From: Lachnospiraceae bacterium
GTDB taxonomy: Bacteria > Bacillota > Clostridia > Lachnospirales > Lachnospiraceae
Direction: 5' to 3'
DNA length: 36,816 bases
Assembly (NCBI GenBank): GCA_017508825.1
Contig: JAFWRC010000117.1
Location: 1-36,816, forward strand
The notes under the pieces were generated by a model. The model was not told where the DNA came from and searched no databases. It was given only the letters and a program-made list of their open reading frames with translations. Below are positions 1,362 through 30,220 of the stretch, one piece after another. The number at the start of each line of letters is the position of its first letter. Position 1 is the first letter of the stretch. The position numbers and the translations under genes were made by a program.

Positions 1362-1390
1362 ACGCTTTTTCTCCTCTCAGTTGCCTTTTT

Positions 1391-1435
1391 CAGAAAAGGA
1401 CAAAGACATGCCAAATAACCGGTATGCCTTTGTCC
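1391..1435 (-). terminator. Terminator of the MFS gene, overlapping the glmS start of transcription
   Basis: A 15-bp stem (1398-1412 with 1421-1435, containing G-U pairs) with an 8-base loop is followed on the minus strand by TTTTCTG. It lies 46 bp after the MFS stop codon. Its upstream arm touches the -10 box of the glmS promoter, so terminator and promoter are interlocked. Confidence 0.65.
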
Positions 1436-1464
1436 ATATTAGATTACTGCTTTTAATCTGTCAA
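1436..1464 (-). promoter_or_regulatory. glmS promoter
   Basis: Read on the minus strand, TTGACA (1459-1464) and TAATAT (1436-1441) are separated by exactly 17 bases. The start point would be near 1429, leaving a leader of about 68 nt before the glmS ATG. Confidence 0.8.
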
Positions 1465-1481
1465 CTCTTGCAAAAGACTTA

Positions 1482-2834: not shown

Positions 2835-2914
2835 GTTTACCTTACCTTACCCTTTCCGAGATGTTGTTAATAGCACGGTTTTCCCCAAAACCGCCGCACA
2901 CAAAACCACACAAT

Positions 2915-2943
2915 ATGATATTCCATTCTCCCGGAAAAAGCAA
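2915..2943 (-). promoter_or_regulatory. Possible MFS gene promoter with leader hairpin
   Basis: On the minus strand TTGCTT (2938-2943) and TATCAT (2915-2920) are 17 bases apart. Downstream, in the predicted leader, CGGTTTT-CCCC-AAAACCG (2876-2893) forms a perfect 7-bp hairpin. An AT-only hairpin (2934-2953) overlapping the -35 may end the upstream regulator transcript. All are modest signals. Confidence 0.45.
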
Positions 2944-2989
2944 ACACTTTTTCATTCAATTCAGTAGAATAATTCCAGAAGATATATCC

Positions 2990-3715
2990 TCAGCCGGAGA
3001 ATTTTGCCTTGATCTCATTATACTTCTCCGTCGTCATCAGTGCCGTCTCATCGATATCCTTCAGTTTCACCGTGTAGGTCCAGCGTCCGTATACCTCCAG
3101 CTTCCGGATTGCATCGATGCGGATGATGTAGGATTTGTGACAGCGCAGGAATTTTGCCGGATCCAGCTTTTCTTCCAGGGAAGACAGCGACTGCGTGGTC
3201 AGAAAAACATCGGTTCCCGTAACGATCCGGGACATGCCGTCCGTCCGCTCGATCATCAGGATATCCGCCGTATCGATCAGGTCGATCTCTTCCTTCCCCC
3301 GGATGATCAGCTTTTCATAAGAAGTTTCCTCCTTTTCCGGTGCCTCTTTGCCGTCCGTCATACTTTTGATCCGCTCCAGCGTCTTTCCGATCCGCTCCAG
3401 ATCAAAGGGTTTCACCAGGTAGTCAAAAGCGTAGATTTCAAAGGCATCCGCCATATATTCGCTGTGGGCCGTAGCAAATACGATCTTGACTTTCGGATCC
3501 ACCTCCGTCAGCGCCTTGGCACACTCCATGCCGCTTTCGCCGCCCAGATCAATATCCATAAAGACTACTTCCGGGCGGAGACGGATAAAATCACTGATCG
3601 CAGCCGCAAAATTACCGCTTGCCGCCACCACCTTGCAGCCTTCCGTCCGTTCGATCATCTTTGTCAGGATATTGCGGATCTGTTCTTCGTCTTCCACCAC
3701 CATTACTCTGATCAT
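2990..3715 (-). CDS. LytTR-family response regulator
   Basis: This 241-residue cytoplasmic protein has an N-terminal receiver domain (about 1-120) and a C-terminal LytTR DNA-binding domain (about 133-236). The receiver shows the acidic pocket EDEE at 8-11, phospho-acceptor Asp54 in VFMDIDLGG, Thr82 in the FATAHSEY strand and Lys102 in YLVKPFD. The LytTR part has the typical RCHKSYIIRIDAI stretch. Regulators of this class act with HPK10/SpoOB-type kinases, and just such a kinase is encoded two genes upstream in the same direction (5271-6026), so the pair probably forms one two-component system (inference). The ATG at 3715 is preceded by AAAGGATAGAG. It ends the kinase-NfeD-FloA-regulator run. 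Confidence 0.9.
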   Translation of the reverse strand: MIRVMVVEDEEQIRNILTKMIERTEGCKVVAASGNFAAAISDFIRLRPEVVFMDIDLGGESGMECAKALTEVDPKVKIVFATAHSEYMADAFEIYAFDYLVKPFDLERIGKTLERIKSMTDGKEAPEKEETSYEKLIIRGKEEIDLIDTADILMIERTDGMSRIVTGTDVFLTTQSLSSLEEKLDPAKFLRCHKSYIIRIDAIRKLEVYGRWTYTVKLKDIDETALMTTEKYNEIKAKFSG

Positions 3716-3742
3716 ATACTCTATCCTTTCTCATGCGCAGAA

Positions 3743-3771
3743 CTGTCGGGATCCTCCACGGATCCCGACAG
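3743..3771 (-). other. Perfect intercistronic hairpin between floA and the regulator gene
   Basis: CTGTCGGGATCC and GGATCCCGACAG form a perfect 12-bp stem with a 5-base loop, 10 bp after the floA stop. No U-run follows on the minus strand, so it looks more like an mRNA-stabilising or processing hairpin, or a weak attenuator, than a full terminator. Confidence 0.6.
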
Positions 3772-3780
3772 CCGGTCCTT

Positions 3781-4761
3781 TCAGTCTTTCTTGTTTTCCA
3801 GATAACTCTTCACGCCGCTTCCGATCTCATTCTTCATCTTGGTGTCAGCCTGTACATTCTTCATATTGTAGTAATCCAGCACTCCGAGACTTCCGGAACG
3901 TAATGCCTCTGCCATCGCGCGCGGCACTTCGGATTCTGCCTTTACCACTTCCGCACGCATTTCCTGCTCCAGAGCGACTGCCATTGCACGTCTTTCCTCG
4001 GCCTTTGCCTGTGCGATCTTGGTATTGGCTTCTGCCTGCAGGCTCATCAGGTTTGCGCCGATGTTTCTGCCGATATCGATATCCGCGATATCAATGGAAA
4101 TGATCTCATATGCCGTACCGGAGTCCAGCCCCTTTTCCAGAACCACCTTTGAGATGTCATCCGGGTTTTCCAGCACGCTGCTGTGGGTCTGCGCGGAACC
4201 TACTGTTGTTACGATACCTTCCCCGACACGTGCCAGGACCGTTGCCTCACCGGCACCACCGATCAGGCGGTCGATATTGGTCCTTACGGTCACACGCGCC
4301 TTTACCAGCAGCTCGATACCGTCTTTTGCCACCGCCGAGATCACCGGTGTTTCGATGACCTTCGGGGTAACGCTCATGGTTACGGCTTCAAATACGTTAC
4401 GTCCTGCCAGATCGATCGCAGATGCCTGCTCAAAGGAAAGGTCCATTCCTGCGCGTTCCGCTGCGATCAGCGCATTGATCACGTTGTCTACATCACCGCC
4501 TGCCAGATAATGTGCTTCCAGCTGATTGGTCTTTACATTCAGACCTGCCTTAGTCGCCTTGATCATAGGTCTTACGATCTTGGCCGGCTGTACACGGCGG
4601 AGCTTCATTCCCACCAGGGTGAAGATCCCGATCTTTACGCCGCTGGCCACGGCGGAGATCCACATTCCCACCGGTACCATTGAGAAAAATACCACCACTA
4701 CTACGATCACCAATACCGCAACCAATGCGATCGGTCCATCTGCCAAATATAACATATTCAT
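3781..4761 (-). CDS. floA: Flotillin-like protein FloA (YqfA family)
   Basis: FloA proteins are membrane-anchored scaffolds that organise functional membrane microdomains. The 326-residue product has the family's usual size and layout: a hydrophobic hairpin or helix at about 8-50 ([21 protein letters not shown]), an SPFH-like middle domain, then a helical region rich in Ala and Glu (about 235-290, [20 protein letters not shown]) characteristic of flotillins. [20 protein letters not shown] and [20 protein letters not shown] are closely similar to YqfA/FloA sequences. A strong AGAGGAGGAGAG ribosome site precedes the ATG at 4761. It lies 27 bp after an NfeD-like gene, the usual partner of flotillins. 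Unusually, a sensor kinase and a response regulator flank this pair. Confidence 0.93.
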
Positions 4762-4788
4762 ATATCTCTCCTCCTCTTCCTGTCGCTG

Positions 4789-5274
4789 TTACTCGGCCTT
4801 CACAATGATCCGGTGATTTTTGATCTCCGTGATCACGAGCGCCGAACCTTTTTTGATGAAATCATTGGATGACTCGATGTCGAGTTTTACTCCTTCAAAT
4901 TCCCCTTTGCCCGAAGGCCTCAGATCCGTCACAGCCGTTCCGGTTCTGCCGATCAGAAATTCCATATCTTCTTCATCAATGAAGGCGTTTTTTCCCGACA
5001 GATCCGTGTCCAGCTTGATCGGTGATTTGATCTTCTGGGAGTTCAGCAGGATCATACTGATCACCAGCATCACCGCGATCAGTACCATCGCGACCGCTCC
5101 GACGATCACCCTCTCCGTGGTAGTCCTCCCTGCAAGAAAGATACCGATCACCGTAAATACGGTTCCGGATATCCCCGGCAGTCCGAACCCCGGCATATAA
5201 AATTCCACTCCGATCAGGAGTATGCCGATGAGCAGTACTGCCACACCTAAAATCTGAATTCCGGTCATTTTCAT
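4789..5274 (-). CDS. NfeD-like membrane protein
   Basis: NfeD proteins accompany flotillin/stomatin genes and are thought to assist their membrane assembly. The 161-residue product is a short-form NfeD. Hydrophobic segments lie at about 6-28, 32-48 and 58-78, with the family motif EFYMPGFGLPGISG near residue 25, followed by a soluble C-terminal OB-fold-like domain (about 100-160, containing LIGRTGTAVTDLRPSG). The serine-protease domain of long NfeD proteins is absent. The ATG at 5274 overlaps the kinase stop codon as ATGA, suggesting coupled translation. A second in-frame ATG at 5268 has better spacing from the AAGGAGG ribosome site and could be used instead. floA follows 27 bp later. Confidence 0.85.
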   Translation of the reverse strand: MKMTGIQILGVAVLLIGILLIGVEFYMPGFGLPGISGTVFTVIGIFLAGRTTTERVIVGAVAMVLIAVMLVISMILLNSQKIKSPIKLDTDLSGKNAFIDEEDMEFLIGRTGTAVTDLRPSGKGEFEGVKLDIESSNDFIKKGSALVITEIKNHRIIVKAE

Positions 5275-6026
5275 CCCCCTCCTTTCCTGTTGTTAAGTTT
5301 GTTGATCTCAACGGTAAATACCGTTTCTTTCTCCTCTGACTTCAGATCGATCGTTCCTCCGTTTTCCCCCAGGATCTCGGAAACGATCGCCAGTCCCATT
5401 CCGTGTCCTTCTTCCTTCTTTGTGGAAAATCCTTTTTTAAAGATCTTCTCCTGCAGATCTTCCGGGATCTGCGGTCCGTTATCTTCTATATAAAATACGT
5501 ACTTCTCCGGTGTTTCCGTGATGTCCACCCGTATCTTTTTCTTTTCCTGTCCGCTCTCTTCCAGCGCCCTTACCGCATTGTCGATCAGATTGGAAAGCAC
5601 TTTGCATAATTCCCAGTCCTCGATCGTAAGATGCTTTAAATCCGACTTTACTTCGATGAGAAACTCCATTCCTTTGGCGTCCGCCTCTGCCGATTTTGCC
5701 GCCAGCAGTGCGTTGATCGCTGGCTTGGAGGTCTTGATCGCTTTTCCGGTCTTCAGCAGTTCCTTGTATACCTGCCGGAGATATTCGTTCATTTCCTCGT
5801 ATTCTTCCAGTTCCATCAGCCCGTATACGATCTGCATATGGTTCAGATAATCGTGCCGGTCCATCCGGAGTTTGTCGTTCAATGCGCTCAGATTGTTGAT
5901 GCTCTCTTTCAGCGACTCCGTCCGGTTCAGCAGCCGGATATAACTCCTTACCAGGATCACGATACATCCGAGCAGGATCACCACCAGGATCACCAAGAGC
6001 AGTATGTTGAATGTTTTATCTCCCAC
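5271..6026 (-). CDS. SpoOB-type sensor histidine kinase (GHKL ATPase)
   Basis: A 251-residue kinase with one N-terminal transmembrane helix (about 6-28), a short coiled region, a SpoOB-like phosphotransfer helix with DRHDYLNHMQIV (His58) and a C-terminal HATPase domain with N-box LSNLIDNAV (Asn150), DNG (182-184) and GHGMGLAI (207-214). It has almost no extracellular part, so it probably senses something in or near the membrane, perhaps through FloA or NfeD (inference). I chose the GTG at 6026 because GGGAGG lies 5 bases before it and because the only good promoter (-10 at 6057-6062) lies downstream of the alternative ATG at 6089, which would add 21 residues. It is the first gene of the run ending with the LytTR regulator. 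Confidence 0.88.
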   Translation of the reverse strand: MGDKTFNILLLVILVVILLGCIVILVRSYIRLLNRTESLKESINNLSALNDKLRMDRHDYLNHMQIVYGLMELEEYEEMNEYLRQVYKELLKTGKAIKTSKPAINALLAAKSAEADAKGMEFLIEVKSDLKHLTIEDWELCKVLSNLIDNAVRALEESGQEKKKIRVDITETPEKYVFYIEDNGPQIPEDLQEKIFKKGFSTKKEEGHGMGLAIVSEILGENGGTIDLKSEEKETVFTVEINKLNNRKGGG

Positions 6027-6056
6027 GTTTGCCTCCCGTCCGGTGTCTATGATCGC

Positions 6057-6084
6057 ATCATAACACAACCGGCCTCCAAAACAA
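6057..6084 (-). promoter_or_regulatory. Promoter of the kinase-nfeD-floA-regulator operon
   Basis: On the minus strand TTGTTT (6079-6084), a 16-base spacer and an extended -10 TGTTATGAT (hexamer at 6057-6062) precede the GTG start by about 30 bases. Its position decides the start of the kinase gene. Confidence 0.6.
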
Positions 6085-6126
6085 TCCATATCGTCTCAAT
6101 CATACAAAAATCCGTCTGAAATGTCA

Positions 6127-6161
6127 TTAAAAAATGAGCGTCCTGCAAACAGAACGCTCAT
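6127..6161 (-). terminator. Intrinsic terminator of the SDR gene
   Basis: A 12-bp stem (ATGAGCGTTCTG with CAGGACGCTCAT on the minus strand) with a 4-base loop is followed directly by a run of six T, 8 bp after the SDR stop codon. Confidence 0.85.
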
Positions 6162-6169
6162 CACTCTCT

Positions 6170-6916
6170 TTAATACGGACTGTCAAATTCCTTTTGTGCT
6201 TTTTCTGCCGCCTCCGCAAGGGAAAGTCCCGAAAATGCCTGCGCTCCGAGGATCCTGCCGGATTTTTTATCATCCAGAAAGGCCCCGATCACAATGCCCG
6301 GGATCGCGCTTTCCGGCGCGTTCGGCGCATTCGGTCCGCCCAGGTCCGTACGGCACCATCCCGGATCCGTCAGGTTGATCATCACATCCGTTCCCTGCAC
6401 GGTCTTTCCGAGATCGATCGTGATCTTATCCAGCGCCGCCTTGCTGGCCGAGTATCCCGCCTGCTCCGGCTCCAGCCGGATACCGCTGGTGGTATTTAAG
6501 ATCCGTCCGAAGCCGCGCTTGATCATCTTCGGCATAAAGTGGTAGCAGATCATCGCCGGCGCAATGGTATTTACGTTAAAGCTGACCAGATAGTCCTCTA
6601 CCGGAGTGGTAAAATACTCCGTGCGGTATGCGATCTGCAATCCCGCGTTATTCAGGACAATATCCACGGTCACGCCCAGTGCATCAATCTCGGAAAGCAT
6701 CTTTTTCACCGCTGCCAGGTCATTTAAGTCCGCTTCCACTTCATGAACCGATACCCCCAGGGCCTCCGCTTCCTGCCGGATCTTCTTTGTGTGTTCCACG
6801 CTCCGGCTGTGCAGGATCAGATTGCATCCCTGCTCCGCCATAAACTTTGCCGAAAGATACCCGATCCCTCTGGCCGCGCCCGTGATCAGTGCCCACCTTC
6901 CTTTTACTGAAATCAT
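6170..6916 (-). CDS. Short-chain dehydrogenase/reductase
   Basis: This 248-residue cytoplasmic protein is a classical SDR of normal length. It has the Rossmann glycine motif TGAARGIG at 12-19, NNAG at 89-92, and the catalytic Ser144, Tyr155 and Lys159 (YSASK). Asp/Arg choices around residues 36-40 (HSRS) suggest NADP(H) rather than NAD(H), but this is weak. The substrate is unknown; the best-known relatives are 3-oxoacyl-ACP-reductase-like and sugar/alcohol dehydrogenases. GGAAGGAGATC precedes the ATG at a good distance. It is a single gene with its own terminator. Confidence 0.9.
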   Translation of the reverse strand: MISVKGRWALITGAARGIGYLSAKFMAEQGCNLILHSRSVEHTKKIRQEAEALGVSVHEVEADLNDLAAVKKMLSEIDALGVTVDIVLNNAGLQIAYRTEYFTTPVEDYLVSFNVNTIAPAMICYHFMPKMIKRGFGRILNTTSGIRLEPEQAGYSASKAALDKITIDLGKTVQGTDVMINLTDPGWCRTDLGGPNAPNAPESAIPGIVIGAFLDDKKSGRILGAQAFSGLSLAEAAEKAQKEFDSPY

Positions 6917-7000
6917 ATCGATGATCTCCTTCCTTTTTTATTTGAGGAAATCATAAAACAGACCGGGCAGTTTCGCTCCTTATTCTATGACCTGCGGGTT

Positions 7001-7028
7001 ATCATATTTTGTGTATAGCAAACGACAA
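7001..7028 (-). promoter_or_regulatory. Possible SDR promoter with an overlapping inverted repeat
   Basis: TTGTCG (7023-7028) and TATGAT (7001-7006) on the minus strand are 16 bases apart. A 21-bp imperfect inverted repeat with TATGA/TCATA ends (6986-7006) covers the -10 and could be an operator. Confidence 0.4.
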
Positions 7029-7091
7029 AACGGAAAGAGTTTGGGTGCTTACTGAAAACAATCTGTTTTTGGCGTTTACTATAAAAAAGGA

Positions 7092-7120
7092 TTGAGAGAA
7101 TGTTGATAGTATGGTAGAAT
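7092..7120 (+). promoter_or_regulatory. tRNA-Leu promoter
   Basis: TTGAGA (7092-7097) and TAGAAT (7115-7120) are separated by 17 bases, about 95 bases before the tRNA. The leader (7131-7209) holds several GGAAC(C/A)-type and CAGTTAC-type imperfect repeats. Confidence 0.6.
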
Positions 7121-7216
7121 AGCAGATGTTCGGAAACCGTAACTACCCGGAACCGTCAAGTTCTGAAACAGTTACTATTGGGAACCATCCGGTTTGGAAC
7201 AGTTACCGGAAATCAA

Positions 7217-7296
7217 GCGGCTATGGCGGAATTGGCAGACGCGCCAGATTTAGGTTCTGGTGGGAGACCGTGCAGGTTCAAGTCCTGTTAGCCGCA
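7217..7296 (+). tRNA. tRNA-Leu (anticodon UAG)
   Basis: The acceptor arms GCGGCTA and TAGCCGC pair perfectly and are followed by discriminator A. The anticodon stem CCAGA/TCTGG encloses loop TTTAGGT, giving anticodon TAG. A long variable arm (TGGGAGACCGT region) and the T-arm AGGTTCAAGTCCT fit a type-II tRNA-Leu. CCA is not encoded. A REP-like hairpin begins 9 bases downstream. Confidence 0.95.
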
Positions 7297-7305
7297 GAAA
7301 TAAAA

Positions 7306-7381
7306 GGTGAGCCAAGGGGACGGTTCTTATGGCAACAAGATCGAAGATCTTTAGCCATAAGAACCGTCCCCTTGGCTCACC
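7306..7381. repeat. REP-like palindromic element, copy 1
   Basis: Two perfectly complementary 28-base arms (7306-7333 and 7354-7381; core GGGGACGGTTCTT) enclose a 20-base asymmetric centre that itself folds (AAGATC-GAA-GATCTT). A second copy lies at 17741-17818 in the opposite orientation, with the centre exactly reverse-complemented. It starts 12 bp after the MATE stop codon. Read on the minus strand it is followed by TTTTATTT, so it probably also ends the MATE operon transcript. The structure suggests a non-autonomous element mobilised in trans (inference). Confidence 0.85.
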
Positions 7382-7392
7382 CGCGGTTTATC

Positions 7393-8784
7393 TCATTCCG
7401 GGATCGGACGGATCACATTTTTATAGATGCGGATCATGAAGAAGCTGGTCACGCACAGCGACATCAGTTCCGCGATCGGGAAGCACCACCAGATCAGATC
7501 CAGGCCGCCGATCTTTGCAAGAATATAGGCTACCGGGATCAATACCACCAGCTGCCGCGCCACGGATACGATCAGACTGTACACACCGTTACCGAGCGCC
7601 TGGAATACGGTGCCGCCGATGATGCAGAACCATGCCAGCAGGTAATGGAATGCGATGATCTTTAACGCCGGCACACCCAGCACGATCAGGCTGGCTTCCC
7701 CGGTATCGAAGATGCGCAGCAGATGCTCCGGGATCAGTTCAAACAGGGCAAATCCGATCAGCAGCAGCAGGAACGCATAAAACATACTGAGTTTGATCAC
7801 CTGCGTCATACGCTTCCGCTTTCTGGCACCGTAATTGAATGCCAGGATCGGTATCATACCGTTATTCAGGCCGAATACCGGCATAAAGAAGAGGCTCTGC
7901 AGTTTGAAATACACGGCAAATACCGAAACAGCCGCCTCGTTCAGCCCCGCCAGGATACGGTTCATGGAGAAGGTCATCACCGAACCGATCGCCTGCATGC
8001 AGATCGACGGAAATCCTACGACATACACCTTTTTAATGATATTCCAATCCGGTTTGAATCCCCGCAGATCCACGCGCACATACTCATTATATTTGTGATT
8101 CAGATAGATCGCCAGCAGGCCTGCACACACCTGGCCAACTACAGTTGCCACGGCCGCTCCCGCCACCTTCATCTCCGGCAACCCGAAATAACCAAAGATC
8201 AGGATCGGATCCAGGACGATGTTGATCACAGCACCGGTGATCTGCGTAAACATGGAATAGATCGTCTTGCCTGTTGACTGCAGCAGACGTTCAAAGATAA
8301 ACTGCGTATAGATACCGAACGAACAGCAGCATACGATCCGCAGGTACTGTGTCCCGTATTCCATTGTAAGACCCGTGCCTTTCTGCAATGCGATCACTGG
8401 TTTTGCCAGAAACAACCCGACCAGAAAGAACAGGATAAAATTGCAGATGGAAAGGAAAACGCCGTTATTGGCCGCTTTCTCTGCCGTTTCATAATCCCGC
8501 TCCCCCAGCGCTCTGGACAGAATGGCATTGACCCCGACACACAATCCTGTCGCAAATGCGATCAAAAGCATCTGAACCGGAAACGCCATACCGAGCGCAG
8601 CAAGCGCTGCTGTCCCCGATTTGCCCGACTCATCCACGATCTTTGCCACAAAAAAGCTGTCTACGATGTTATAAAATGCCTGTACCAGCATCGAGATCAT
8701 CATAGGCAGCGCCATATTGATCAACAGTTTGTTCATGGGCAAGACGCCCATTTTGTTCTCTACGATTTCCCCTGAGTCATTCAT
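7393..8784 (-). CDS. MATE-family multidrug/metabolite exporter
   Basis: A 463-residue protein with about 12 transmembrane segments and typical MATE features: an N-terminal MGVLPMNKLLINMALPMMISMLVQ start, FFVAKIVDESGKSGTAALAALGMAFPVQML in the first bundle, and repeated GxxxQ-like features in both halves. MATE exporters expel cationic drugs or metabolites using Na+ or H+ gradients; the substrate is unknown. I chose the ATG at 8784. A longer open frame upstream (to 8928) encodes only an Arg/Lys-rich stretch that is the shifted reading of the lysine-rich tail of the preceding GGDEF gene. The ATG overlaps the GGDEF stop by 8 bases, with AAGAAAAG upstream, so the two are probably translationally coupled. 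It is the last gene of the ClpX-like/GGDEF/MATE operon. Confidence 0.9.
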   Translation of the reverse strand: MNDSGEIVENKMGVLPMNKLLINMALPMMISMLVQAFYNIVDSFFVAKIVDESGKSGTAALAALGMAFPVQMLLIAFATGLCVGVNAILSRALGERDYETAEKAANNGVFLSICNFILFFLVGLFLAKPVIALQKGTGLTMEYGTQYLRIVCCCSFGIYTQFIFERLLQSTGKTIYSMFTQITGAVINIVLDPILIFGYFGLPEMKVAGAAVATVVGQVCAGLLAIYLNHKYNEYVRVDLRGFKPDWNIIKKVYVVGFPSICMQAIGSVMTFSMNRILAGLNEAAVSVFAVYFKLQSLFFMPVFGLNNGMIPILAFNYGARKRKRMTQVIKLSMFYAFLLLLIGFALFELIPEHLLRIFDTGEASLIVLGVPALKIIAFHYLLAWFCIIGGTVFQALGNGVYSLIVSVARQLVVLIPVAYILAKIGGLDLIWWCFPIAELMSLCVTSFFMIRIYKNVIRPIPE

Positions 8785-10303
8785 CTTTCTTTTCTTTCGT
8801 ATCCTTTTCTTTCTTCTTATCCGCCGGCTTCGCGTCTTCTTCCTCATCCTCCAGCGCTTCCTGCTCCGCTTCACGCATCGCGATCTCCGCAAAAAGCTGC
8901 ATCGGATTTTCCGAATCCAATATCTCATCCGAGAAAGTGATCATGGTATTGCCCCGCTTCTCATCCTGCTGGAATACCAGGAGCATGCGATAGCATGGCT
9001 GTGCGCCGTCCATGGTCACGACCAGCTGGTCCCTGCCATGTTCCTTGCCGTAATACAACTTCTCATCCGCCTGCTTGATCAGGTCTTCCAGTTCACTCTT
9101 CGGCGAACCTTCCACCAGACCGATCGTCATGGTCACACGCAGCGTATGCTGTCCATAGGTCACACTCAGCCCATGCAGACGGTCAATATATTCCTCCAGG
9201 GCAGCTCCCGCATTGATCAGTTCCATATCTTCAAAGATCAGCAGGAATTCCTCACCGCCCCAGCGTACGGCATGACCGCGTCCGCCCATGAGCTCCTTCA
9301 ATTCCCCGGCCACAAATTTCAGCACCTCGTCACCGGCATCGTGTCCATAAGTATCGTTTACTTTCTTAAAAAAGTCAATATCTGCGATCGCAATCGCAAA
9401 CGGAGCGCCTGTTTTGGCAGAACGCCGCTGCATATTTTTCAGCTTGGCATTTCCGTAGCGGCGGTTATACAGCGTAGTCAGCGGATCACATTCCACCAGC
9501 ACGCGCACCGCATTCTGCATACGCACGATATCGCCGCCGGTCTGTCCGATCTCATCCTTGCGTTTGAGCACCGTATCCGGCATGGTATTGCTCAGATTTC
9601 CGCCCACCATTCCGGCCAGGAAATGGTGGATCTGGTTGATCGCATTGACGATACGGCTGGTATAACGGATACTGATAATGCTTGCTGTCAGCAGCCCCAG
9701 GAGCGTGATCACCAGGATCGGCCAGGATGCCTGCGCCGCTTCCTTCTTGATCTCGGCAGAAGTCAGTGCCGTTGCCACCATTCCCGTCAATGCTCCGTCC
9801 GAATTCCACAACGGGATGTAGCAGGCATAGTACAGCTCTCCCATGATCTCTACTTCATAATATAACGGTATCTGTTTCCGCTCCATTTGCGAAGATACCG
9901 CCGCATTGATCGCGCTCCCGGCGTACCGGTTGCCCTCCTCATCCTGCAGCGTCGTCAGGATACGGGCATCTTTAAAAAACAGCGAGATGTGCATGCCGCT
10001 CTTTTCCCGCAGATGGTCCAGAAAAGCGTACTGTTCCGTCAGTTCGATATCCCCTTTATACAGCGAAACATAACCGCCGCCCAGCTGCACCAGCCGGTAA
10101 TCTCCGGGATACATCTCATCATAGCTCTCCGCCACCGCCGAAGCCGTCGCATACAGAGACCGTTGCAGTTCCTCCTGCAGCGAACTCTTTTCCCGCAGCA
10201 CCGCCGTCGCATCGATGATCACGCACATCACAAGCATCGGCAGGATTGTCCGAATTAATACCGCCCTTTGCAGTTTTCCGATTCTTTGCTTTTCTATCTT
10301 CAT
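8777..10303 (-). CDS. Membrane-bound diguanylate cyclase (Cache-HAMP-GGDEF)
   Basis: The 508-residue protein should make the second messenger c-di-GMP. It has an N-terminal membrane helix (about 14-35), an extracellular Cache-like sensor (about 40-190), a second membrane helix (about 193-213), a HAMP-like linker and a GGDEF domain (about 275-435) with DPLTTLYNRRY, ADIDFFKKVNDTYGHDAGD and an intact RWGGEEF active site. The RxxD product-inhibition site five residues before GGEEF is absent. The C-terminal extension of about 70 residues ends in an acidic then lysine-rich tail and is unusual. The ATG at 10303 has only a weak GGGGCG ribosome site. It lies 31 bp after the second ClpX-like gene and overlaps the MATE gene by 8 bases. 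Confidence 0.9.
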   Translation of the reverse strand: MKIEKQRIGKLQRAVLIRTILPMLVMCVIIDATAVLREKSSLQEELQRSLYATASAVAESYDEMYPGDYRLVQLGGGYVSLYKGDIELTEQYAFLDHLREKSGMHISLFFKDARILTTLQDEEGNRYAGSAINAAVSSQMERKQIPLYYEVEIMGELYYACYIPLWNSDGALTGMVATALTSAEIKKEAAQASWPILVITLLGLLTASIISIRYTSRIVNAINQIHHFLAGMVGGNLSNTMPDTVLKRKDEIGQTGGDIVRMQNAVRVLVECDPLTTLYNRRYGNAKLKNMQRRSAKTGAPFAIAIADIDFFKKVNDTYGHDAGDEVLKFVAGELKELMGGRGHAVRWGGEEFLLIFEDMELINAGAALEEYIDRLHGLSVTYGQHTLRVTMTIGLVEGSPKSELEDLIKQADEKLYYGKEHGRDQLVVTMDGAQPCYRMLLVFQQDEKRGNTMITFSDEILDSENPMQLFAEIAMREAEQEALEDEEEDAKPADKKKEKDTKEKKDE

Positions 10304-10334: not shown

Positions 10335-11888
10335 TTATAAATATGCCGGTTTTGCTTCCTTCCGTGCCACCGCCGCCGTGATCAGCACTTCCTTCACGCC
10401 CGGTACCGTCGGCACTTCAAACAACGCATCCTCCAATATTTCATGCACAACTGCATTTAAGCCTCTGGCTCCGATACTCATCTCGTTCACACGGTCGATG
10501 ATCACATCCAGCGCCTCGTCCGTAAAGTGCAGTTCCACGTTGTCTTCCACCATAAATTCTCTCTCGTATCTGGATAAGATACTGTCTTCCGGCTCCACCA
10601 GCACCCGTTTCATCGTCTCCCGGTCCAGTTTCTTAAGAACCGTCACAGTACTCAGACGTCCTGCCAGCTCCGGTTTCATCCCGTACTCCATCAGATGCTC
10701 GGTCTTTAACAGTTCCCCGGTCATCTCAAAATCCTCGTCCTTTGAAATGTCGCTTCCGAAACCGATCCCGCCGTTCACATACTCTTTTTTGACGATCTTT
10801 TCCAGTCCTTCAAAAGCGCCCGCACAGATAAACAGGATATCCGTAGTGTTCATCATAAGGATCTCCTGACCGCCGGACTTGTCCTGCAGCGGCACATCGA
10901 TATCCGTGCCCTCAAACATCCCGAGCAGCTGCCCCTGCAGTTCGTTGTTGATATCGCCGCCTTTGGAATACAGCTTTGCCGGAATGATCTTGTCAAACTC
11001 ATCGCAGAAGACGATGCCGCACTCGGTCAGGTCCACATCCTTTCCGGCTTTCAGGTACAGGTTCAGCAGACTTTCCTCTTTGTTCCTGCCCTTCCACGGT
11101 GTTGCCACAATACCGGAAAAATCCGAGATCACCACCGGCACCGGCACCAGATCCGTCAGACGCCGGATCATCTCCGTCTTGCCGCAGCCGGAAGGGCCGA
11201 CCATCAGCACATTGGTCTTGATCAGATTGGCCTCCGGATGCACGATCCTCAAAAAATGATTATACACCGCCGTGCTCAGCACTTCCTTGGTCTCTTCCTG
11301 TCCGATCACAAAACGGTCCAGATATTCCTTGATCTTCCGCGGCGTATATTCGCGGATAAACTTTCTGCACTCCTCCATAAACGGCAGCTCGGCGCGGTCC
11401 TTCTCCTCTTCCGTCTTGCGCTGCATCTTGATATTGCGCACCTTATTCTGCTGGTAACGCACACGGCATACCGCCAGCTGGCCCAGTTCATCTTCCGCCT
11501 TCTGCCGGTCCGGCTGATCCATCAGCTCAGACTCCATAAAATCAAAGAGTTCTTCCAGATCATCGTTGGTGATCTCCGTCTCCACGGTTCTGGCCATGTA
11601 GAATACCGGATCGTTCTTGTAGGCCGCTGCCGCTTCGCGGATGATCGCCCAGAACGGCGTGCGATACCCTTTTTCCTTAAAGCTCGCGCCCATCAGCTTG
11701 AAAATACTGTCCAGGTTGCGCTCACTCTCAGGTCTGGTAAGCATGATATAATGTAACATAATGCGCAGATAATCGCACAGCAGCTGCTCATTGGAAATAG
11801 CGCCGCCGTTTTCTTTATAAAACGCCAGACGTCCGCGGACATATGCCGCACACTCTTCATCCGATCTGCACTCAAAAATCTGTTTCAT
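10335..11888 (-). CDS. ClpX-like AAA+ ATPase without zinc finger (paralogue B)
   Basis: A 517-residue protein whose C-terminal two thirds (about 185-510) align with ClpX. It has the entry motif YLDRFVIGQEETKEVLSTAVYNH, Walker A GPSGCGKT (231-238), Walker B IVFCDEFD (292-299), the IGF tripeptide (375-377, in GGIGFG) used by ClpX to dock ClpP, the arginine-finger region ELAGRLS and sensor-2 GARGL. The ClpX pore loop GYVG is replaced by a W265-KGR stretch. The first 180 residues are helical and unrelated to the ClpX zinc-binding domain, so substrates probably differ (inference). Its ATG follows the stop of paralogue A directly (TAAATG). It could unfold proteins for ClpP or work as a lone remodeller; no clpP is in the window. 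Confidence 0.85.
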   Translation of the reverse strand: MKQIFECRSDEECAAYVRGRLAFYKENGGAISNEQLLCDYLRIMLHYIMLTRPESERNLDSIFKLMGASFKEKGYRTPFWAIIREAAAAYKNDPVFYMARTVETEITNDDLEELFDFMESELMDQPDRQKAEDELGQLAVCRVRYQQNKVRNIKMQRKTEEEKDRAELPFMEECRKFIREYTPRKIKEYLDRFVIGQEETKEVLSTAVYNHFLRIVHPEANLIKTNVLMVGPSGCGKTEMIRRLTDLVPVPVVISDFSGIVATPWKGRNKEESLLNLYLKAGKDVDLTECGIVFCDEFDKIIPAKLYSKGGDINNELQGQLLGMFEGTDIDVPLQDKSGGQEILMMNTTDILFICAGAFEGLEKIVKKEYVNGGIGFGSDISKDEDFEMTGELLKTEHLMEYGMKPELAGRLSTVTVLKKLDRETMKRVLVEPEDSILSRYEREFMVEDNVELHFTDEALDVIIDRVNEMSIGARGLNAVVHEILEDALFEVPTVPGVKEVLITAAVARKEAKPAYL

Positions 11889-13421
11889 TTAACTCTCCAC
11901 TTCCGGCAGCCGATTTCCGGTACCTTCCGAAGAAATCTCTTCCGTTTCGTATAGCGCTTCCGCGCCTTTTAATATCACATCCTCGTTGATCACAACGCGT
12001 TTAAGCCCCTTCATCTCCGGCGCTATGTACAGTACCTTGCGCAGTGCCTTGCCCAGAATGCTCTGTAACGCTCTCGCGCCCACCGGTGTCTTAAGCGCTT
12101 CCTGTGCCGCAGCCAACAGCGCGCCTTCGGTAAAGATCAGTTCTGCATCCACGGAAAGCCGCAGTTCCCGCTCGTATCGCTCGATCAGGTTGTCCTTCGG
12201 CTCGGTCAGGATACGGATCAGATCCTGCTCGGTAAGCCGCTCCAATACCGCAACCGTCGAAACACGCCCCGCCAGTTCCCGCTTCATTCCGTATTCCATC
12301 AGCACTTCATGGTTGATATTATCCCGCACAAAAGACAGATCCATCTCTTTTTCCAGTGTCGAAAGAAAACCGATGTTTCCCGGCATATTCTCTCTCTTCT
12401 TTTTATCCGAGCGGATATATTCCTCAATGCCCTGAAACGCCCCTGCAAGGACAAAGAGCATATGAGATGTGTTCAAAAGCAGCGGCATGCCGTCTGCCTT
12501 CAGTTCGATCTCGCTGCCTTCAAGCATCGTCAGCATCTGCGACTGCACATCGTCATGGATGTTGACGCCACGCTCCGAGATGGCCGGGAGCAGCAGTTTG
12601 TCAAATTCATCCATAAAGATGATGCCCTTTTCCGCATCCGCTTTTTTCCGTCCGGCCGCCTCGTACAGTTCCAGCAGGATATCCTCTTTGTGCCTGCCGC
12701 GAAACTGACTGGCCCCCAGGGAAGATACGTCTGTAAAGACCATCGGATAATCGACGATCTCCCGGATCCGGCGCATGATCTCCGTCTTGCCACAGCCGGA
12801 CGGCCCGATCAGCAGCACCACATTCGGCGCAAATTTCAGTTCCGGATGCCGCAGGCGCTTTCCATGTCCGTACACTGCCGTACAGACCGCCATCTTGGCA
12901 TCGTTCTGTCCGATGATATAGTCATCCAGATACGCCTTCATCTCCGCCGGTTTCTTCCATTGGCTCTGTAAAGTGCCATCCGATACCTGCCGCAGATAGG
13001 TACGGCGCAGACGCGTGATGCGTCCGAGCACATTCCGTTCGCGGCTGTTCATCGATTTATCCACCGCCTTGCGAAGGGTATCCGCTTCCAGAAAATCCAG
13101 GATAAACCCGGCCCGCTCTCCGAAAATCTCCGTTGAATAGACCAGATCCTCCTCCAGTTTGTCCAGGACATGCAGAAGAGAACGCATCTGCGGCATGATG
13201 CTCGAATCCTCGATCACCCGGAAACACAGGATCTCCAGATAACTGAGTGCCTCCGCATCCGCGATCTGCACGTCGTCGCAGACCAGCGTCAGCCGCCGGA
13301 TAATATAGTCCGAGATATCCTTGCCAAGCATGGAATTGTCCAACAGTTTGTTCCCGGCTGCGCCGATCGGCATGCCGAACATCTTATTCTTTTTTTGTAT
13401 TTCCTGAAAAATATTGATCAT
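11889..13421 (-). CDS. ClpX-like AAA+ ATPase without zinc finger (paralogue A)
   Basis: A 510-residue relative of paralogue B and first gene of the operon. The N-terminal 155 residues are helical and differ from those of B. The AAA+ part shows YLDDYIIGQNDAKMAVCTAVYGH, Walker A GPSGCGKT (206-213), Walker B IIFMDEFD (267-274), IGF (350-352, within NIGFLS), arginine-finger region ELAGRVS (Arg386) and GARALQS at sensor 2. The pore loop is F240-RGR instead of GYVG. All residues needed for ATP use appear intact, so an active unfoldase is likely; retained IGF suggests ClpP contact is possible. The ATG at 13421 has only a weak ribosome site. A promoter lies about 40 bp upstream. Confidence 0.85.
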   Translation of the reverse strand: MINIFQEIQKKNKMFGMPIGAAGNKLLDNSMLGKDISDYIIRRLTLVCDDVQIADAEALSYLEILCFRVIEDSSIMPQMRSLLHVLDKLEEDLVYSTEIFGERAGFILDFLEADTLRKAVDKSMNSRERNVLGRITRLRRTYLRQVSDGTLQSQWKKPAEMKAYLDDYIIGQNDAKMAVCTAVYGHGKRLRHPELKFAPNVVLLIGPSGCGKTEIMRRIREIVDYPMVFTDVSSLGASQFRGRHKEDILLELYEAAGRKKADAEKGIIFMDEFDKLLLPAISERGVNIHDDVQSQMLTMLEGSEIELKADGMPLLLNTSHMLFVLAGAFQGIEEYIRSDKKKRENMPGNIGFLSTLEKEMDLSFVRDNINHEVLMEYGMKRELAGRVSTVAVLERLTEQDLIRILTEPKDNLIERYERELRLSVDAELIFTEGALLAAAQEALKTPVGARALQSILGKALRKVLYIAPEMKGLKRVVINEDVILKGAEALYETEEISSEGTGNRLPEVES

Positions 13422-13490: not shown

Positions 13491-15704
13491 TCATAACGAA
13501 GGAAGGGTCAGATAAACTTCCCTGTTTATATAACCTGTCAGCCTCTTTTCCCGCGCTTTTACGATCAGGCTGCGGTTCCTGTGAAAACGCACAAATACAG
13601 ATGACATCCGTATGCAGATCCGGTCCGTTTCGCAGCGCTCCAGGATATCCCTGCACAGCTCAATGCTGCAGATGCGCCCTTTCTCCGAACGGATGAGCCT
13701 TCGTCCCAGGCGTTTTTTCCTGCCGTCAATGCCGATGGTATCCACCTCCGCCATTGCAAACAGATAGACCAGCCCGGCGCAGATACCGGCCACGCCGCCA
13801 AGGCAGCCTGTGGTGACCGCCACGACAGCCACGGTCTTCTTCACGGCATCGTCCTGTTTTTTCCCCGCCTCGCCGCTATCCGTCCGCTCGATGGTTTCCG
13901 TGTGTGCGATGGTTTCCGTACGCTCCTGCTCCGCCGCCGGCGTCGAATGCGCTACCGGGATCTGCACCGTTTCCGGCTGTTCTGCAGACACCGGCAGTTC
14001 TTCCGGTACCGGCCGGACTGTCATCTCCGGCTGCTCTGCCGGGACCGTGGATACCTCCTGTTGCGGACGCTCTCCGGGTTGTGGGGTGTCCTCTGTCTCC
14101 GAACCTGTTGATGCCGGCTGTTCCTCCGGCGTTACAGGTTCTTCGGGTACTTCGGTTTCCACGGTTTCTTCGATCTTCTCGGTTTCCGCAGTTTCTTCGA
14201 TCTTCTCGGTTTCTTCGATCTGCTCGGTTTCCTCTGCTCCCATCGTCACATCGATTTCCGGCTCTGTCACAGCTTTGATCTCCGGCTCTTCCGGAACCGG
14301 CTGCGATATCGTTTGTGGAACTTCTTTCGGTGTTTCGGTCGACGTCTCTATTGGTGTTGTCGTTGGTGTTGTCGTTGGTGTTGTCGTCGGTATCGTCGTT
14401 GGTGTTGCCGTCGGCTTCGCCGTTGGTGTAACGGTCGGTATCTTAGTCGGTGTCACCGTAGGTTCCACGGTCGACGTTGCCGTTGGTATCGCCGTTGGTG
14501 TAACGGTCGGTATCTTAGTCGGTGTCACCGTAGGTTCCTCGGTCGGCGTTGCCGTTGGTATCGCCGTTGGTGTAACGGTCGGTATCTTAGTCGGTGTCGC
14601 CGTAGGTTCCTCGGTCGGCGTTGCCGTTGGTATCGCCGTTGGTGTAACGGTCGGTATCTTAGTCGGTGTCGCCGTAGGTTCCTCGGTCGGCGTCGACGTC
14701 GGGATCGCTGTCGGGGTTGCTATCGGCGTCGACGTCGGCGTTGCTGTCGGGGTCACTGTTGGCGTCGGGGTTATCATCCCTTTATTTGTCACCATTTTCA
14801 GGACCGGCTCTTCCTCCCCTGACCAGCGCCACACGCCGGTCGGCTTTCCTTTTCTGTCAAAAACCGTCTCACCGTCCAGCACATAACCGCCAAATTCTTC
14901 CCCTTCCGGCATTTCCGGGACCTCAACCGCTTCATATGTCTCCCCATAACGCGCTTCGAAGCTCTGATCCGGTACTCCGTCCCCGTTCTGATCCGCGCCG
15001 TAGTGAACGATATAGGTATCCGGCGCCCATCGGCTCTCCAAAAAGATCTCTTCTTCGGTATCCCAATGCCATACATCCATAGAACGTCCCTGTCCGTCCA
15101 TCAGCTGGCTGCCATCATACCAATACCCGTCAAAATGATACCCCGGCTCCGCTTTCGGGTACGTCATAAAAGGTATATCCTCGTCATAAGATACGACCAG
15201 GCTCCTGTCCGGTCTGCCATCCTTATCCTGATCGTCACCGTACCAAAGCCGGTAGCTTTTGGGAAGCCACGCAGCATACAGATCCAAAACCGGCTCATCG
15301 AGGTTTGTTTCCGTACCGGTCGGCTCACCATACTCATCATAATAAACCGTCTGGTCGCTCACAAAACCTTCAAAGGTATACCCCTCCCGTTCCGGCACGG
15401 AAATCTCCGGCCAGCTCCCTCCGTTTCGTATTTCAATTTCCTGAAGCCGGATCCCGTCATCCCAAAACCGGATCCGTATCGTGGACGGCTGGTCTTCTGT
15501 GAAGAAAGGATCCTCATCAAAAAACGGATCTCCCGCGGCAAAATCCTCCTGTTCCTGCAATGGTTCTTCTTCGGCCTGCTCCGGTACGGCAGCACCGGCA
15601 GCGATCCAAGTCCATCGGAAAGTTGTGAGCAGCACAGCAAAAAAACACATTGTACTGCCAAGACATCTGAAGATGCCTTTTCTCATCCTATTGCTTTTTT
15701 TCAT
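13491..15704 (-). CDS. Secreted/membrane protein with InlB-type repeats, Thr-Pro stalk and basic cytoplasmic tail
   Basis: I do not recognise this 737-residue protein as a whole. In order it has a signal peptide or anchor (about 8-40); an acidic segment; Flg_new/InlB-like beta repeats (about 75-310, with [18 protein letters not shown] and two aspartate loops like [11 protein letters not shown] that resemble calcium sites); a Thr-Pro stalk (about 315-480) built from 24-residue repeats; a Glu/Thr/Pro-rich region; one transmembrane helix (about 624-654); and an 83-residue basic tail containing four Cys. The topology suggests a surface rod anchored by a C-terminal helix with an inside domain that could signal. 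No LPXTG sorting motif is seen. AAGGAGG precedes the ATG. It lies directly upstream of the ClpX-like operon. Confidence 0.85.
14401..14712. repeat. 72-bp tandem repeat inside the Thr-Pro stalk
   Basis: The block beginning GGTGTAACGGTCGGTATC recurs at 14425, 14497, 14569 and 14641, a fixed 72-bp period. Each unit encodes 24 residues of TPT(E/V)EPT(A/V)[12 protein letters not shown]-type stalk, and the units are nearly identical, so copy number is likely to vary among strains. Confidence 0.9.
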
Positions 15705-17926: not shown

Positions 17927-19507
17927 TTATTCGGCGCCGCGTACGATGATCTCGGGCGCGCCCTTGCCTTCGAGATAATCGCGGGTGATCGTGACCGTAC
18001 CGATATTGTCGTCTTTAGGGATCTCGTACATGATGTCGACCATGTATTCGTCGAGAATGGAGCGAAGCGCACGGGCGCCGGTCTCCTTTTTGATCGCTTT
18101 CTCCGCGATCAGCTCCAGCGCGTCATCCGCAAAGTTCAGCTTCACCTCATCCAGGGCCAGCAGCTTCTGGTACTGCTTCAGGATCGCATTTTTCGGCTCT
18201 TTCAGGATGCGGACCATCATCTCCTGATCGAGACCTTCCAATGCGCAGACCATGGGAAGACGGCCGACAAACTCCGGGATCATACCGAACTTGCGGATAT
18301 CTTCGGTCTCCACCTTCTGCATGATCTTCTTGCTCTGGTCATCCTTGTCTGCCAGCTCAGCGTGAAATCCAATGCCGCCGCTTTTATTTAATCTGTTTTT
18401 AATTATTTCTTCGATCCCCGGAAATGCACCGCCGCATATAAACAGGATATTGCGTGTGTTCACGGTGGTCGTGGGTACCATTGCGTTCTTGGAAGATGCT
18501 CCGACCGGCACTTCAATATCCGATCCTTCGAGAAGCTTGAGCATTCCCTGCTGTACCGATTCCCCGCTCACATCACGGGAATTGGTATTCTGCTTCTTGG
18601 CGATCTTGTCGATCTCATCGATATAGATGATGCCCTGCTCCGCCTTGTCCACATCATTGCCTGCGGCAGCTAGCAGCTTGCTCACAACGCTTTCGATGTC
18701 ATCACCGATATAACCGGCTTCGGTCAGAGAGGTCGCATCCGTGATCGCAAGCGGAACATTCAGGATCTTTGCCAGCGTCTGTACCAGGTAGGTCTTACCA
18801 CAGCCCGTGGGACCGAGCATCAGCATATTGGACTTCTCGATCTGGATCTCATCCATGGTATTGGTCGCAATCCGCTTGTAGTGGTTGTAGACCGCAACGC
18901 TCATGATCTTCTTGGCTTTTTCCTGTCCGACCACATACTCATCCAGCATCGCCTTGATCTTGTGCGGCGCCGGGATATCTTTCAGTTCGATCAGCGGCTT
19001 GTGCTCGCCTTTTTCCTTCTTTTTCACCTTCTGGCGGCCGCTGAAGCCGAAATCAAAAGGCAGATCCGCAAAGTTGACAAAGCTCACTTTCGGGATACCG
19101 TTTCCCGGCTTCTTCGTCTCGTCTTTTTTCTCCGGTTCATCCGTCTCGTTCTTCTTCAGCTCCCCGGCATCATCCGCTCCGGAACGCGCTTCTTTTTCCA
19201 CTGCAGCTTCACCGTCTTTTGCCGGCTCCTCAGCGCTTTTGTTTGTCATATCCGGATGAAACATCCTCGGATCCATCTGCATGGTCGAAGGGTTATACAT
19301 GCTCATCACCTTTGACCAGTCTATGGCACCGGCGCCGTTCATCCCGCCCATCTGCGCATCGATCATATCCGAAAGCTTGTCCATGCATTCCGGGCAGATA
19401 TACATATTCATCGGCATACGGACCAGTTTGCCGGCCTGGCTCTCCGGTCTGCGGCAGATACTGCAAATCTCGTCATATCCATCCTTATTGTGATCCTGAT
19501 CACTCAT
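17927..19507 (-). CDS. clpX: ATP-dependent Clp protease ATP-binding subunit ClpX, long-linker form
   Basis: ClpX unfolds tagged proteins and feeds them to ClpP. This protein carries the N-terminal zinc-binding domain (Cys15, Cys18, Cys38, Cys41), Walker A GPTGCGKT (232-239), pore loop GYIG (265-268), Walker B IIYIDEID (293-300), the ClpP-docking IGF (379-381), arginine finger in EFVGRLP and sensor-2 GARALRS. At 526 residues it is about 100 longer than usual ClpX. The excess is a charged, low-complexity linker (about 60-165) between the zinc domain and the AAA+ core. GGAGGAACC precedes the ATG. No clpP or trigger-factor gene is adjacent, so this may be a second ClpX beside a housekeeping one elsewhere (inference). 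Confidence 0.92.
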   Translation of the reverse strand: MSDQDHNKDGYDEICSICRRPESQAGKLVRMPMNMYICPECMDKLSDMIDAQMGGMNGAGAIDWSKVMSMYNPSTMQMDPRMFHPDMTNKSAEEPAKDGEAAVEKEARSGADDAGELKKNETDEPEKKDETKKPGNGIPKVSFVNFADLPFDFGFSGRQKVKKKEKGEHKPLIELKDIPAPHKIKAMLDEYVVGQEKAKKIMSVAVYNHYKRIATNTMDEIQIEKSNMLMLGPTGCGKTYLVQTLAKILNVPLAITDATSLTEAGYIGDDIESVVSKLLAAAGNDVDKAEQGIIYIDEIDKIAKKQNTNSRDVSGESVQQGMLKLLEGSDIEVPVGASSKNAMVPTTTVNTRNILFICGGAFPGIEEIIKNRLNKSGGIGFHAELADKDDQSKKIMQKVETEDIRKFGMIPEFVGRLPMVCALEGLDQEMMVRILKEPKNAILKQYQKLLALDEVKLNFADDALELIAEKAIKKETGARALRSILDEYMVDIMYEIPKDDNIGTVTITRDYLEGKGAPEIIVRGAE

Positions 19508-30171: not shown

Positions 30172-30220
30172 GTTTTGCACCTTCCTTTCATAAAGTTGGC
30201 AATATTATGTAACCTTGTTG

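What the first reader, a model, noticed from the sequence alone, without database searches (positions are those of the whole stretch)
10335..13421. Two tandem ClpX-like ATPases with new N-terminal domains and altered pore loops
Both proteins keep every ATPase element and the ClpP-docking IGF tripeptide of ClpX, but both lack the zinc-binding domain and carry different helical N-terminal domains of 155-180 residues. The ClpX pore loop GYVG is replaced by F-RGR or W-KGR in both. The genes abut as TAAATG and may form a mixed hexamer. The same window also holds a conventional ClpX. This suggests a specialised, possibly ClpP-linked unfoldase pair with its own substrates.
Basis: partly seen in the sequence, partly recalled or inferred. 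Interest (0 to 1): 0.72.

Follow-up and report, generated by a model that had tools for sequence, protein, structure and literature searches.

The report
Paired ClpX-like unfoldases beside c-di-GMP synthase
A genus of Lachnospiraceae, several of them from the rumen, carries two co-inherited relatives of the protein-unfolding machine ClpX with new front ends and rewired pores, usually beside a gene that makes the signal c-di-GMP, which points to a dedicated unfoldase or protease whose client has not yet been tested.

Summary
Gene A (11889-13421) and gene B (10335-11888) encode AAA+ proteins of the ClpX branch with intact ATPase motifs. They have no zinc domain, no RKH loop, mutually unrelated helical N-terminal domains, and pore-1 loops Q[FY]RGRHK (A) and TPW[KR]GRNKEE (B), each found in 30 of 30 orthologues counted. 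The aromatic and glycine of GYVG stay and valine becomes Arg/Lys, as in the KYRG loop of the first ring of ClpA and ClpB. The ClpP-docking tripeptide is kept in 30/30 A and 29/30 B.

The pair occurs, side by side, in 31 of 35 genomes of one Lachnospiraceae genus and in none of 25 sampled outside it. The tree suggests one old duplication, after which the pair was copied as a unit. A diguanylate cyclase lies immediately or one gene downstream in 30 of 30 testable loci.

Best reading: a mixed ClpX-like ring, probably docking ClpP, acting on operon-linked clients, the cyclase being the leading candidate. Against this, two genomes without A/B keep the cyclase (one with its tail; the other's is cut off), and the divergent second pairs have no such cyclase beside them. 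The window's third ClpX is a paralogue, not the clpP-linked one. New variant of a known kind.

The parts
11889..13421 (-). gene A: ClpX-like AAA+ protein, 510 aa, first of the pair
   Evidence: orthologues in 31 of 35 genus genomes
12954..13421 (-). A N-terminal domain, residues 1-156, six helices, no zinc finger
   Evidence: AlphaFold2 pLDDT 83.5, pTM 0.80; Foldseek PDB: no hit with E<=0.001
12687..12707 (-). A pore-1 loop QFRGRHK (residues 239-245)
   Evidence: Q[FY]RGRHK in 30 of 30 A orthologues counted
12366..12374 (-). A IGF tripeptide (residues 350-352), putative ClpP dock
   Evidence: [IMLVF]G[FY] in 30 of 30; place
10335..11888 (-). gene B: ClpX-like AAA+ protein, 517 aa, second of the pair
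   Evidence: orthologues in 31 of 35 genus genomes
11346..11888 (-). B N-terminal domain, residues 1-181, helical, unrelated to that of A by profile
   Evidence: AlphaFold2 pLDDT 83.2, pTM 0.73; hhalign with the A domain 3%; Foldseek PDB: no hit with E<=0.001
11079..11102 (-). B pore-1 loop TPWKGRNK (residues 263-270)
   Evidence: TPW[KR]GRNKEE in 30 of 30 B orthologues counted
10758..10766 (-). B IGF tripeptide (residues 375-377), putative ClpP dock
   Evidence: 29 of 30 orthologues counted; place
8777..10303 (-). gene D: sCache_3 + GGEEF diguanylate cyclase with a C-terminal tail, likely same operon
   Evidence: directly downstream of B in 29 of 31 loci
8858..8911 (-). D tail motif (short helix-like stretch, then a charged end) after a hypervariable linker
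   Evidence: alignment of 28 D orthologues, motif judged by eye; also in G015, which lacks A/B
13491..15704 (-). gene E: secreted Pro/Thr-rich protein with a C-terminal membrane segment and cytosolic tail, upstream of A
   Evidence: C-terminal profile hit upstream of A in 21 of 31 loci; topology by eye
17927..19507 (-). ClpX paralogue (zinc domain, GYIG pore, long linker), outgroup, not part of the pair
   Evidence: 553 bits, over the ClpX cut-off

Best explanation
A and B are the two subunits of a dedicated, hetero-oligomeric ClpX-type unfoldase. Each brings a different helical docking domain. The shared ring uses aromatic-Arg/Lys-Gly pore-1 loops, like the recognition ring (D1) of ClpA/ClpB, in place of GYVG, and probably hands threaded chains to the housekeeping ClpP through retained IGF-type loops. 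Its clients are local: the pair appears to sit in one transcription unit with a membrane diguanylate cyclase, and the likeliest role is to remodel or degrade that cyclase (or a partner of it) and so set c-di-GMP output. Shown here: intact ATPase motifs, conserved loops, constant pairing, common origin of the cores, conserved gene order. Inferred: mixed ring, ClpP use, transcription unit, the cyclase as client. My own step estimates: active unfoldase-type ATPase 0.9; A and B work together 0.75; ClpP docking 0.65; cyclase as client 0.3.
For: ATPase motifs are intact in 30/30 A and 30/30 B, and [IMLVF]G[FY] is kept in 30/30 and 29/30, while the residues around it vary. Canonical ClpX proteins of this order also have IGF or MGF there. 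The pair is adjacent in 31/31 carriers, with genes overlapping or lying within 26 bases of each other. In the tree, A+A'+A'' (100/99) and B+B'+B'' (82/35) form one clade (100/100, stem 1.63) apart from ClpX1, ClpX2 and HslU, as expected if the pair was duplicated as a pair. A-B partial distance correlation is 0.58 against 0.33 or less for the five other gene pairs, over 19 genomes. Purifying selection. D is next in 29 of 31 loci and one gene on in a 30th; the last contig ends. A second pair type in G010, and its decayed copy in G003, has another neighbour (757 aa), found only in those 2 of 60 genomes, as if that pair type had its own local partner. ClpA and ClpB D1 both have KYRG; [quoted passage not shown]
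Against: No complex, activity or expression was tested. G015 (99% complete) and G014 lack A/B but keep D. G015 keeps ClpX2-E-D in order and a D tail of the same kind; G014's D is cut by the contig end. So D and its tail do not need A/B, and D may be only a neighbour. The divergent second pairs have no D-type cyclase next to them; in L062 a different GGDEF protein without the tail lies about 2.5 kb away on the other strand, and no 757-aa partner is there. E was not found upstream in 10 of 31 loci. One B (L070) has lost the IGF. In the second pairs the B copies read QGF and GSF there, A'' reads FGF and only A' keeps IGF. The pore-1 loop of A'' has no aromatic (QSAGKH) and that of A' carries an insertion. 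Four D tails end in lysine runs rather than acidic residues (L063-L066). B-clade support is weak (82/35), and long branches meet in the tree.
Confidence: 0.4

Rival explanations
1. A/B form a ClpP-independent remodelling chaperone (as ClpX alone can act) that activates or disassembles the cyclase, the surface protein E or another partner; the IGF loops are inherited or used rarely.
For: Neighbourhood with membrane signalling proteins; loss of the zinc domain and RKH; IGF lost or altered in the divergent pairs and in L070 B.
Against: [IMLVF]G[FY] is kept in 59 of 60 main orthologues while the rest of the loop varies, which argues for a use that needs it.
Confidence: 0.25
2. A and B work with or against the two other ClpX proteins of the cell: mixed rings with ClpX1 or ClpX2, or competition for ClpP, making the pair a regulator of general ClpXP rather than a machine with its own client.
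For: The pair lies about 4.5 kb from ClpX2 in the window, and ClpX2 lies in 20 of 30 carrier stretches fetched (stretches differ in length and some contigs end); a canonical clpX-clpP pair exists elsewhere in the genome.
Against: The B core is about 37-42% identical to ClpX1 and ClpX2 proteins of the genus, and A and B have their own conserved pore loops; A and B distances follow each other more than they follow ClpX2.
Confidence: 0.15
3. The pair unfolds proteins of mobile elements or phages (a defence or counter-defence role) and its place beside the cyclase is incidental.
For: Not in every genome of the genus (31 of 35, two of the four others incomplete); a divergent copy lies beside a phage-integrase-like gene (L062; PHROG integrase E 1.1e-7); a decayed copy exists.
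Against: Kept gene order over the genus; PADLOC gives AAA-type hits only, the best DolB at E 3e-11, and the ClpX paralogue hits the same kinds of model; only two weak ClpA/ClpB-like hits in viral contigs; low dN/dS.
Confidence: 0.07

Closest known systems
ClpX (NCBIfam NF003745 / TIGR00382)
   Same: AAA+ core over its whole length, Walker A/B, Arg finger, sensor 2, IGF-type loop
   Different: No zinc domain, no RKH, no GYVG, different pore-2 loop, scores below cut-off, unrelated N-terminal domains, two different genes
Myxococcus xanthus ClpX3 (PMC11423568; 12 of 27 passages seen)
   Same: A divergent extra ClpX without the N-terminal domain and without RKH; separate role (heat)
   Different: Single gene that lacks the domain rather than replacing it; the passages seen mention no pore-loop change
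ClpA / ClpB first ring (D1), KYRG pore-1 loop (E. coli sequences; PMC9663308, 12 of 34 passages seen)
   Same: Aromatic-Arg-Gly pore-1 loop; [quoted passage not shown]
   Different: D1 is a classic-clade module inside a two-ring protein; A and B have a single ring on the ClpX scaffold, so the likeness is convergent (inference)
ClpI, Actinomycetota (PMC10149685, abstract and passages)
   Same: A Clp unfoldase class found by genome comparison, with a variable N-terminal domain and variable ClpP motif
   Different: ClpB/ClpC-like architecture; the passages seen describe no pair
ClpXP control of c-di-GMP in Caulobacter (PdeA via CpdR; PMC8973945 passages)
   Same: Regulated proteolysis of a c-di-GMP enzyme by a ClpX machine
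   Different: Canonical ClpX with a separate adaptor, and the client is a phosphodiesterase

Membership tests
ClpX | score over the curated family cut-off | tested here: not met
   289.2 (B) and 232.2 (A) against 359 bits for NF003745; 261.3 and 206.8 against 370.75 for TIGR00382
ClpX | N-terminal C4 zinc-binding domain | tested here: not met
   no zf-C4_ClpX in Pfam; no C4 motif in 30 A or 30 B rows
ClpX | GYVG pore-1 loop | tested here: not met
   0 of 30 A, 0 of 30 B; alignment
ClpX | RKH loop at the pore entrance | tested here: not met
   absent at the aligned place in all 13 A and 13 B rows shown; the string RKH occurs anywhere in 1 of 60 proteins. The ClpX paralogue ClpX2 also lacks it (12 of 12 rows) yet the window's ClpX2 passes the family cut-off, so this feature is not strict
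ClpX | complete AAA+ core (Walker A, Walker B, Arg finger, sensor 2) | tested here: met
   30 of 30 A, 30 of 30 B
ClpX | IGF-type ClpP-docking tripeptide | tested here: met
   [IMLVF]G[FY] in 30/30 A, 29/30 B (place by eye)
ClpX | binds ClpP and feeds it unfolded protein | not testable with these tools
   needs biochemistry
HslU (ClpY) | score over the HslU cut-off | tested here: not met
   120.2 and 123.6 against 362.45 bits
two-ring Clp (ClpA/ClpB/ClpC) | two AAA+ rings per chain | tested here: not met
   one AAA+ module in each
two-ring Clp (ClpA/ClpB/ClpC) | D1-type pore-1 motif, aromatic-[RK]-G | tested here: met
   FRG/YRG and WKG/WRG against KYRG of E. coli ClpA 258-261 and ClpB 250-253; a resemblance of one loop only

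The most novel reading that the evidence does not exclude
The first natural obligate hetero-oligomeric ClpX-type unfoldase, as far as I know. It is a modular two-subunit chassis in which a ClpX ring has convergently gained ClpA/ClpB-D1-type pore loops and two new docking domains. Pair types are tied to their own operon-linked clients (a c-di-GMP synthase in most species, a 757-aa protein of unknown family for the second pair type).
Probability: 0.3. Interest if true: 0.8.

Novelty: new variant of a known kind. Interest (0 to 1): 0.6.

Why it matters
ClpX is generally treated as a homohexamer with one GYVG pore (recalled). If A and B form a mixed ring, nature supplies a ClpX in which pore chemistry and docking domain differ by subunit, a question so far approached with engineered linked hexamers (recalled). 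The conserved aromatic-Arg/Lys-Gly loops on a ClpX scaffold offer a clean test of whether pore-1 chemistry alone sets D1-like (recognition) or D2-like (power) behaviour. If the cyclase is the client, this is a dedicated protease or unfoldase for a second-messenger enzyme, encoded with its target.

Tried and rejected

Tail of the cyclase as an A/B-specific docking tag: attractive (by eye a short helix-like motif after a hypervariable linker in the 28 aligned D proteins; last 40 residues net negative in 27 of 28, though four end in lysine runs; basic pore loops). It was demoted, because G015 lacks A/B yet keeps such a tail.

Surface protein E as a constant partner: rejected; found upstream in 21 of 31 loci.

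Gain or loss of A/B in G014/G015: trees of ClpX2 and D place them among early, long branches with G011 and G017, which carry A/B; unresolved. G024 and G033 also lack hits but are only 77% and 67% complete.

Wider spread: the B pore-loop DNA pattern hit 2 of 397 family genomes (only G000, G002 and G015 of these are in the genus) and 2 of 398 phylum genomes; the one outside the genus (G810) is not ClpX-like by eye. The pattern allows no mismatch and misses some arginine codons, so it is not a complete test. The scan of 84,980 species genomes used patterns (TPW[KR]GRNK, DEFDK[IVM][IV]P) that cannot see the second pair type, so that type may be commoner than known. Viral contigs: two weak hits, ClpA/ClpB-like by eye, and none for B'. 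120 phage records match the core at under 60% identity; their pore loops were not looked at.

Papers (eight searches that ran; titles and abstract starts of capped lists only, unless passages are named): ClpX-like + Lachnospiraceae, none; others (15 of 33 listed; 12 of 344; 10 of 62) listed no title on such a pair; some searches were on c-di-GMP, the genus, pore loops and adaptors. Absence from print is not shown.

Mistakes found: misread the A start in L105 (corrected to 785-2248) and the B of L115, which is cut by unknown bases. alone lacked a positive control; supply it. My ORF picker missed A in L053 (present), so the rows counted are 30 A (with L074, without L053) and 30 B (with L053, without the gapped L074); the second pairs L047 and L062 were left out of those counts. 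One search used the 19 genomes that had all four genes.
Full report
What is there. Pfam and NCBIfam place both in the ClpX branch of AAA+ proteins, but below the curated ClpX cut-offs: 232 and 289 bits against 359. Their cores align end to end with solved ClpX structures.

The pore. The alignment of A, B, canonical ClpX, the window's ClpX paralogue and HslU, with the E. coli ClpA and ClpB loops beside it, shows the change clearly. ClpX has TEAGYVGEDVE; A of the window has GASQFRGRHKED and B has VATPWKGRNKEE. The aromatic and the glycine remain; valine becomes arginine or lysine and the following acidic residue becomes arginine. Within the stretches Q[FY]RGRHK (A) and TPW[KR]GRNKEE (B) nothing else varies in 30 of 30 orthologues of each; the flanks vary a little. 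The nearest match I know is the pore-1 loop of the D1 ring of ClpA and ClpB (LLAGTKYRGDFEKR, LVAGAKYRGEFEER). [quoted passage not shown] The pore-2 loops also differ, and the RKH loop is missing.

Other elements. Walker A, Walker B, Arg finger and sensor 2 are intact in 30/30 of each; no C4 zinc motif is found. The ClpP tripeptide is [IMF]G[FY] in 30/30 A and [IML]GF in 29/30 B, the exception being L070 (letters by eye, counts). Whole-gene dN/dS is 0.041-0.070 for A and 0.035-0.093 for B in eight species pairs each, and in all sixteen comparisons higher in the N-terminal domain than in the core; several pairs have dS near or above 1, so the ratios are rough.

The N-terminal domains. AlphaFold2 gives fairly confident helical folds for both (pLDDT 83.5 and 83.2). 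They are not related to each other by profile comparison, and no solved structure matches clearly.

Distribution. In 35 genomes of the genus (own genome included) 31 carry both genes, side by side. The 63 other genomes of that call show only ClpX-level scores to B (best 1.4e-69, against 9e-171 or better for 30 carriers and 4e-110 for the gapped copy of G023). The N-terminal profiles find the same 31 and none of the 25 genomes outside the genus in their sample, one of them from the same family and 24 from the same order. Nine of the 30 record titles name rumen or omasum, one horse faeces; the rest do not say. The genus is probably the one GTDB calls NK4A179 (recalled, from strain names). G014 (94% complete) and G015 (99%) lack the pair; G024 and G033 are too incomplete to judge.

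Origin. A tree of 56 AAA cores puts all A and B in one clade (100/100) on a long stem (1.63), split into A (100/99) and B (82/35). The divergent second pairs of G010 and G011 split the same way, A' and A'' with A, B' and B'' with B. The simplest reading is a single duplication that made the pair, and later copies that moved as pairs; support on the B side is weak and some branches are long. G003 holds a decayed copy of the second type, with pieces of both N-terminal domains but no AAA cores found in the 7.5 kb read. Over 19 genomes the partial correlation of A and B distances is 0.58, against 0.33 or less for the other five pairs of genes; no significance was computed.

Operon. D, a diguanylate cyclase with a sensor Cache domain and an intact GGEEF, follows B directly in 29 of 31 loci (window plus 30), sits one gene further in L098/G005, and cannot be judged in L105, where the contig ends. 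Gaps are short, from -4 to +185 bases. E, a secreted Pro/Thr-rich protein with a C-terminal membrane segment and cytosolic tail (by eye), precedes A in 21 of 31. D ends in a variable linker, a short helix-like motif (by eye) and a charged end, net negative in 27 of 28. In G015 the order ClpX2-E-D is kept with only A and B missing, flanked by an HtrA-like and a MATE-like gene (by eye), and D still has such a tail. G014 keeps ClpX2 and, at the contig end, D without A/B. The second pair type has its own neighbour, a 757-aa protein with no match in Pfam, NCBIfam, PHROGs or PADLOC at the limits used, found only in the two genomes with that pair type (2 of 60). The second pairs are not next to a D-type cyclase.

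How it most likely works. A and B assemble together. The two helical domains choose clients, the ring threads them with D1-like loops, and ClpP receives the chain. Operon partners are the first candidates for clients, above all the cyclase, which would make the pair a local control on c-di-GMP. ClpXP control of a c-di-GMP enzyme is known in Caulobacter (PdeA; PMC8973945, passages). Everything after 'A and B belong together' is inference. The cyclase link is weakened by the genomes that keep the cyclase without A/B, though the main A/B pair has not been seen without the cyclase where it could be checked (30 of 30 loci).

Against known things. This is a ClpX relative that fails four ClpX tests and meets two. 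Divergent extra ClpX proteins are known: M. [quoted passage not shown] New Clp classes are still being found (ClpI; PMC10149685, abstract and passages). No title on such a pair turned up in the listed results of searches. I rate it a new variant of a known kind.

Noticed in passing
window 17927-19507: ClpX paralogue with zinc domain, extended linker, GYIG pore and no RKH, next to an HtrA-type protease gene in the window and in relatives; also found in at least six other genera of the family.
   Followed up: partly
G000:C296 11540-12044 (L005, L006): Remnant of another clpX: zinc domain and start of the core, then only the C-terminal part in another frame; a second ClpP-like gene lies about 3 kb away.
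   Followed up: partly
L047 (G010:C143) 249-6087: Second, divergent pair A'B' followed by a 757-aa protein and preceded by a 110-aa protein, neither with a convincing Pfam match.
   Followed up: partly
L143 (G003:C66) 1315-5310: Decayed copy of the second module: N-terminal domain pieces of A' and B' remain, AAA cores not found, a 757-aa-type protein is still present.
   Followed up: partly
L062 (G011:C74) 6103-9201: Third divergent pair; the A'' pore-1 loop has lost the aromatic (QSAGKH). An integrase-like gene lies beside it.
   Followed up: partly
window 13491-15704: Surface protein E with Thr-Pro repeats; its full-length relatives range from 599 to 1280 aa, with the C-terminal membrane and cytosolic part best kept by eye.
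   Followed up: partly
L098 11572-13086: 504-aa protein with no Pfam or NCBIfam match between B and the cyclase in G005.
   Followed up: partly
L103, L104, L106, L110, upstream of A: Protein E was not found here; L106 and L110 have a 277-287-aa ion-channel-like protein upstream of A and L104 a fragment of one (by eye, not tested).
   Followed up: no
window 24309-28169 and 28357-30180: Large surface proteins: the first with papain-type peptidase, Big_2 and choline-binding repeats, the second with choline-binding repeats.
   Followed up: no
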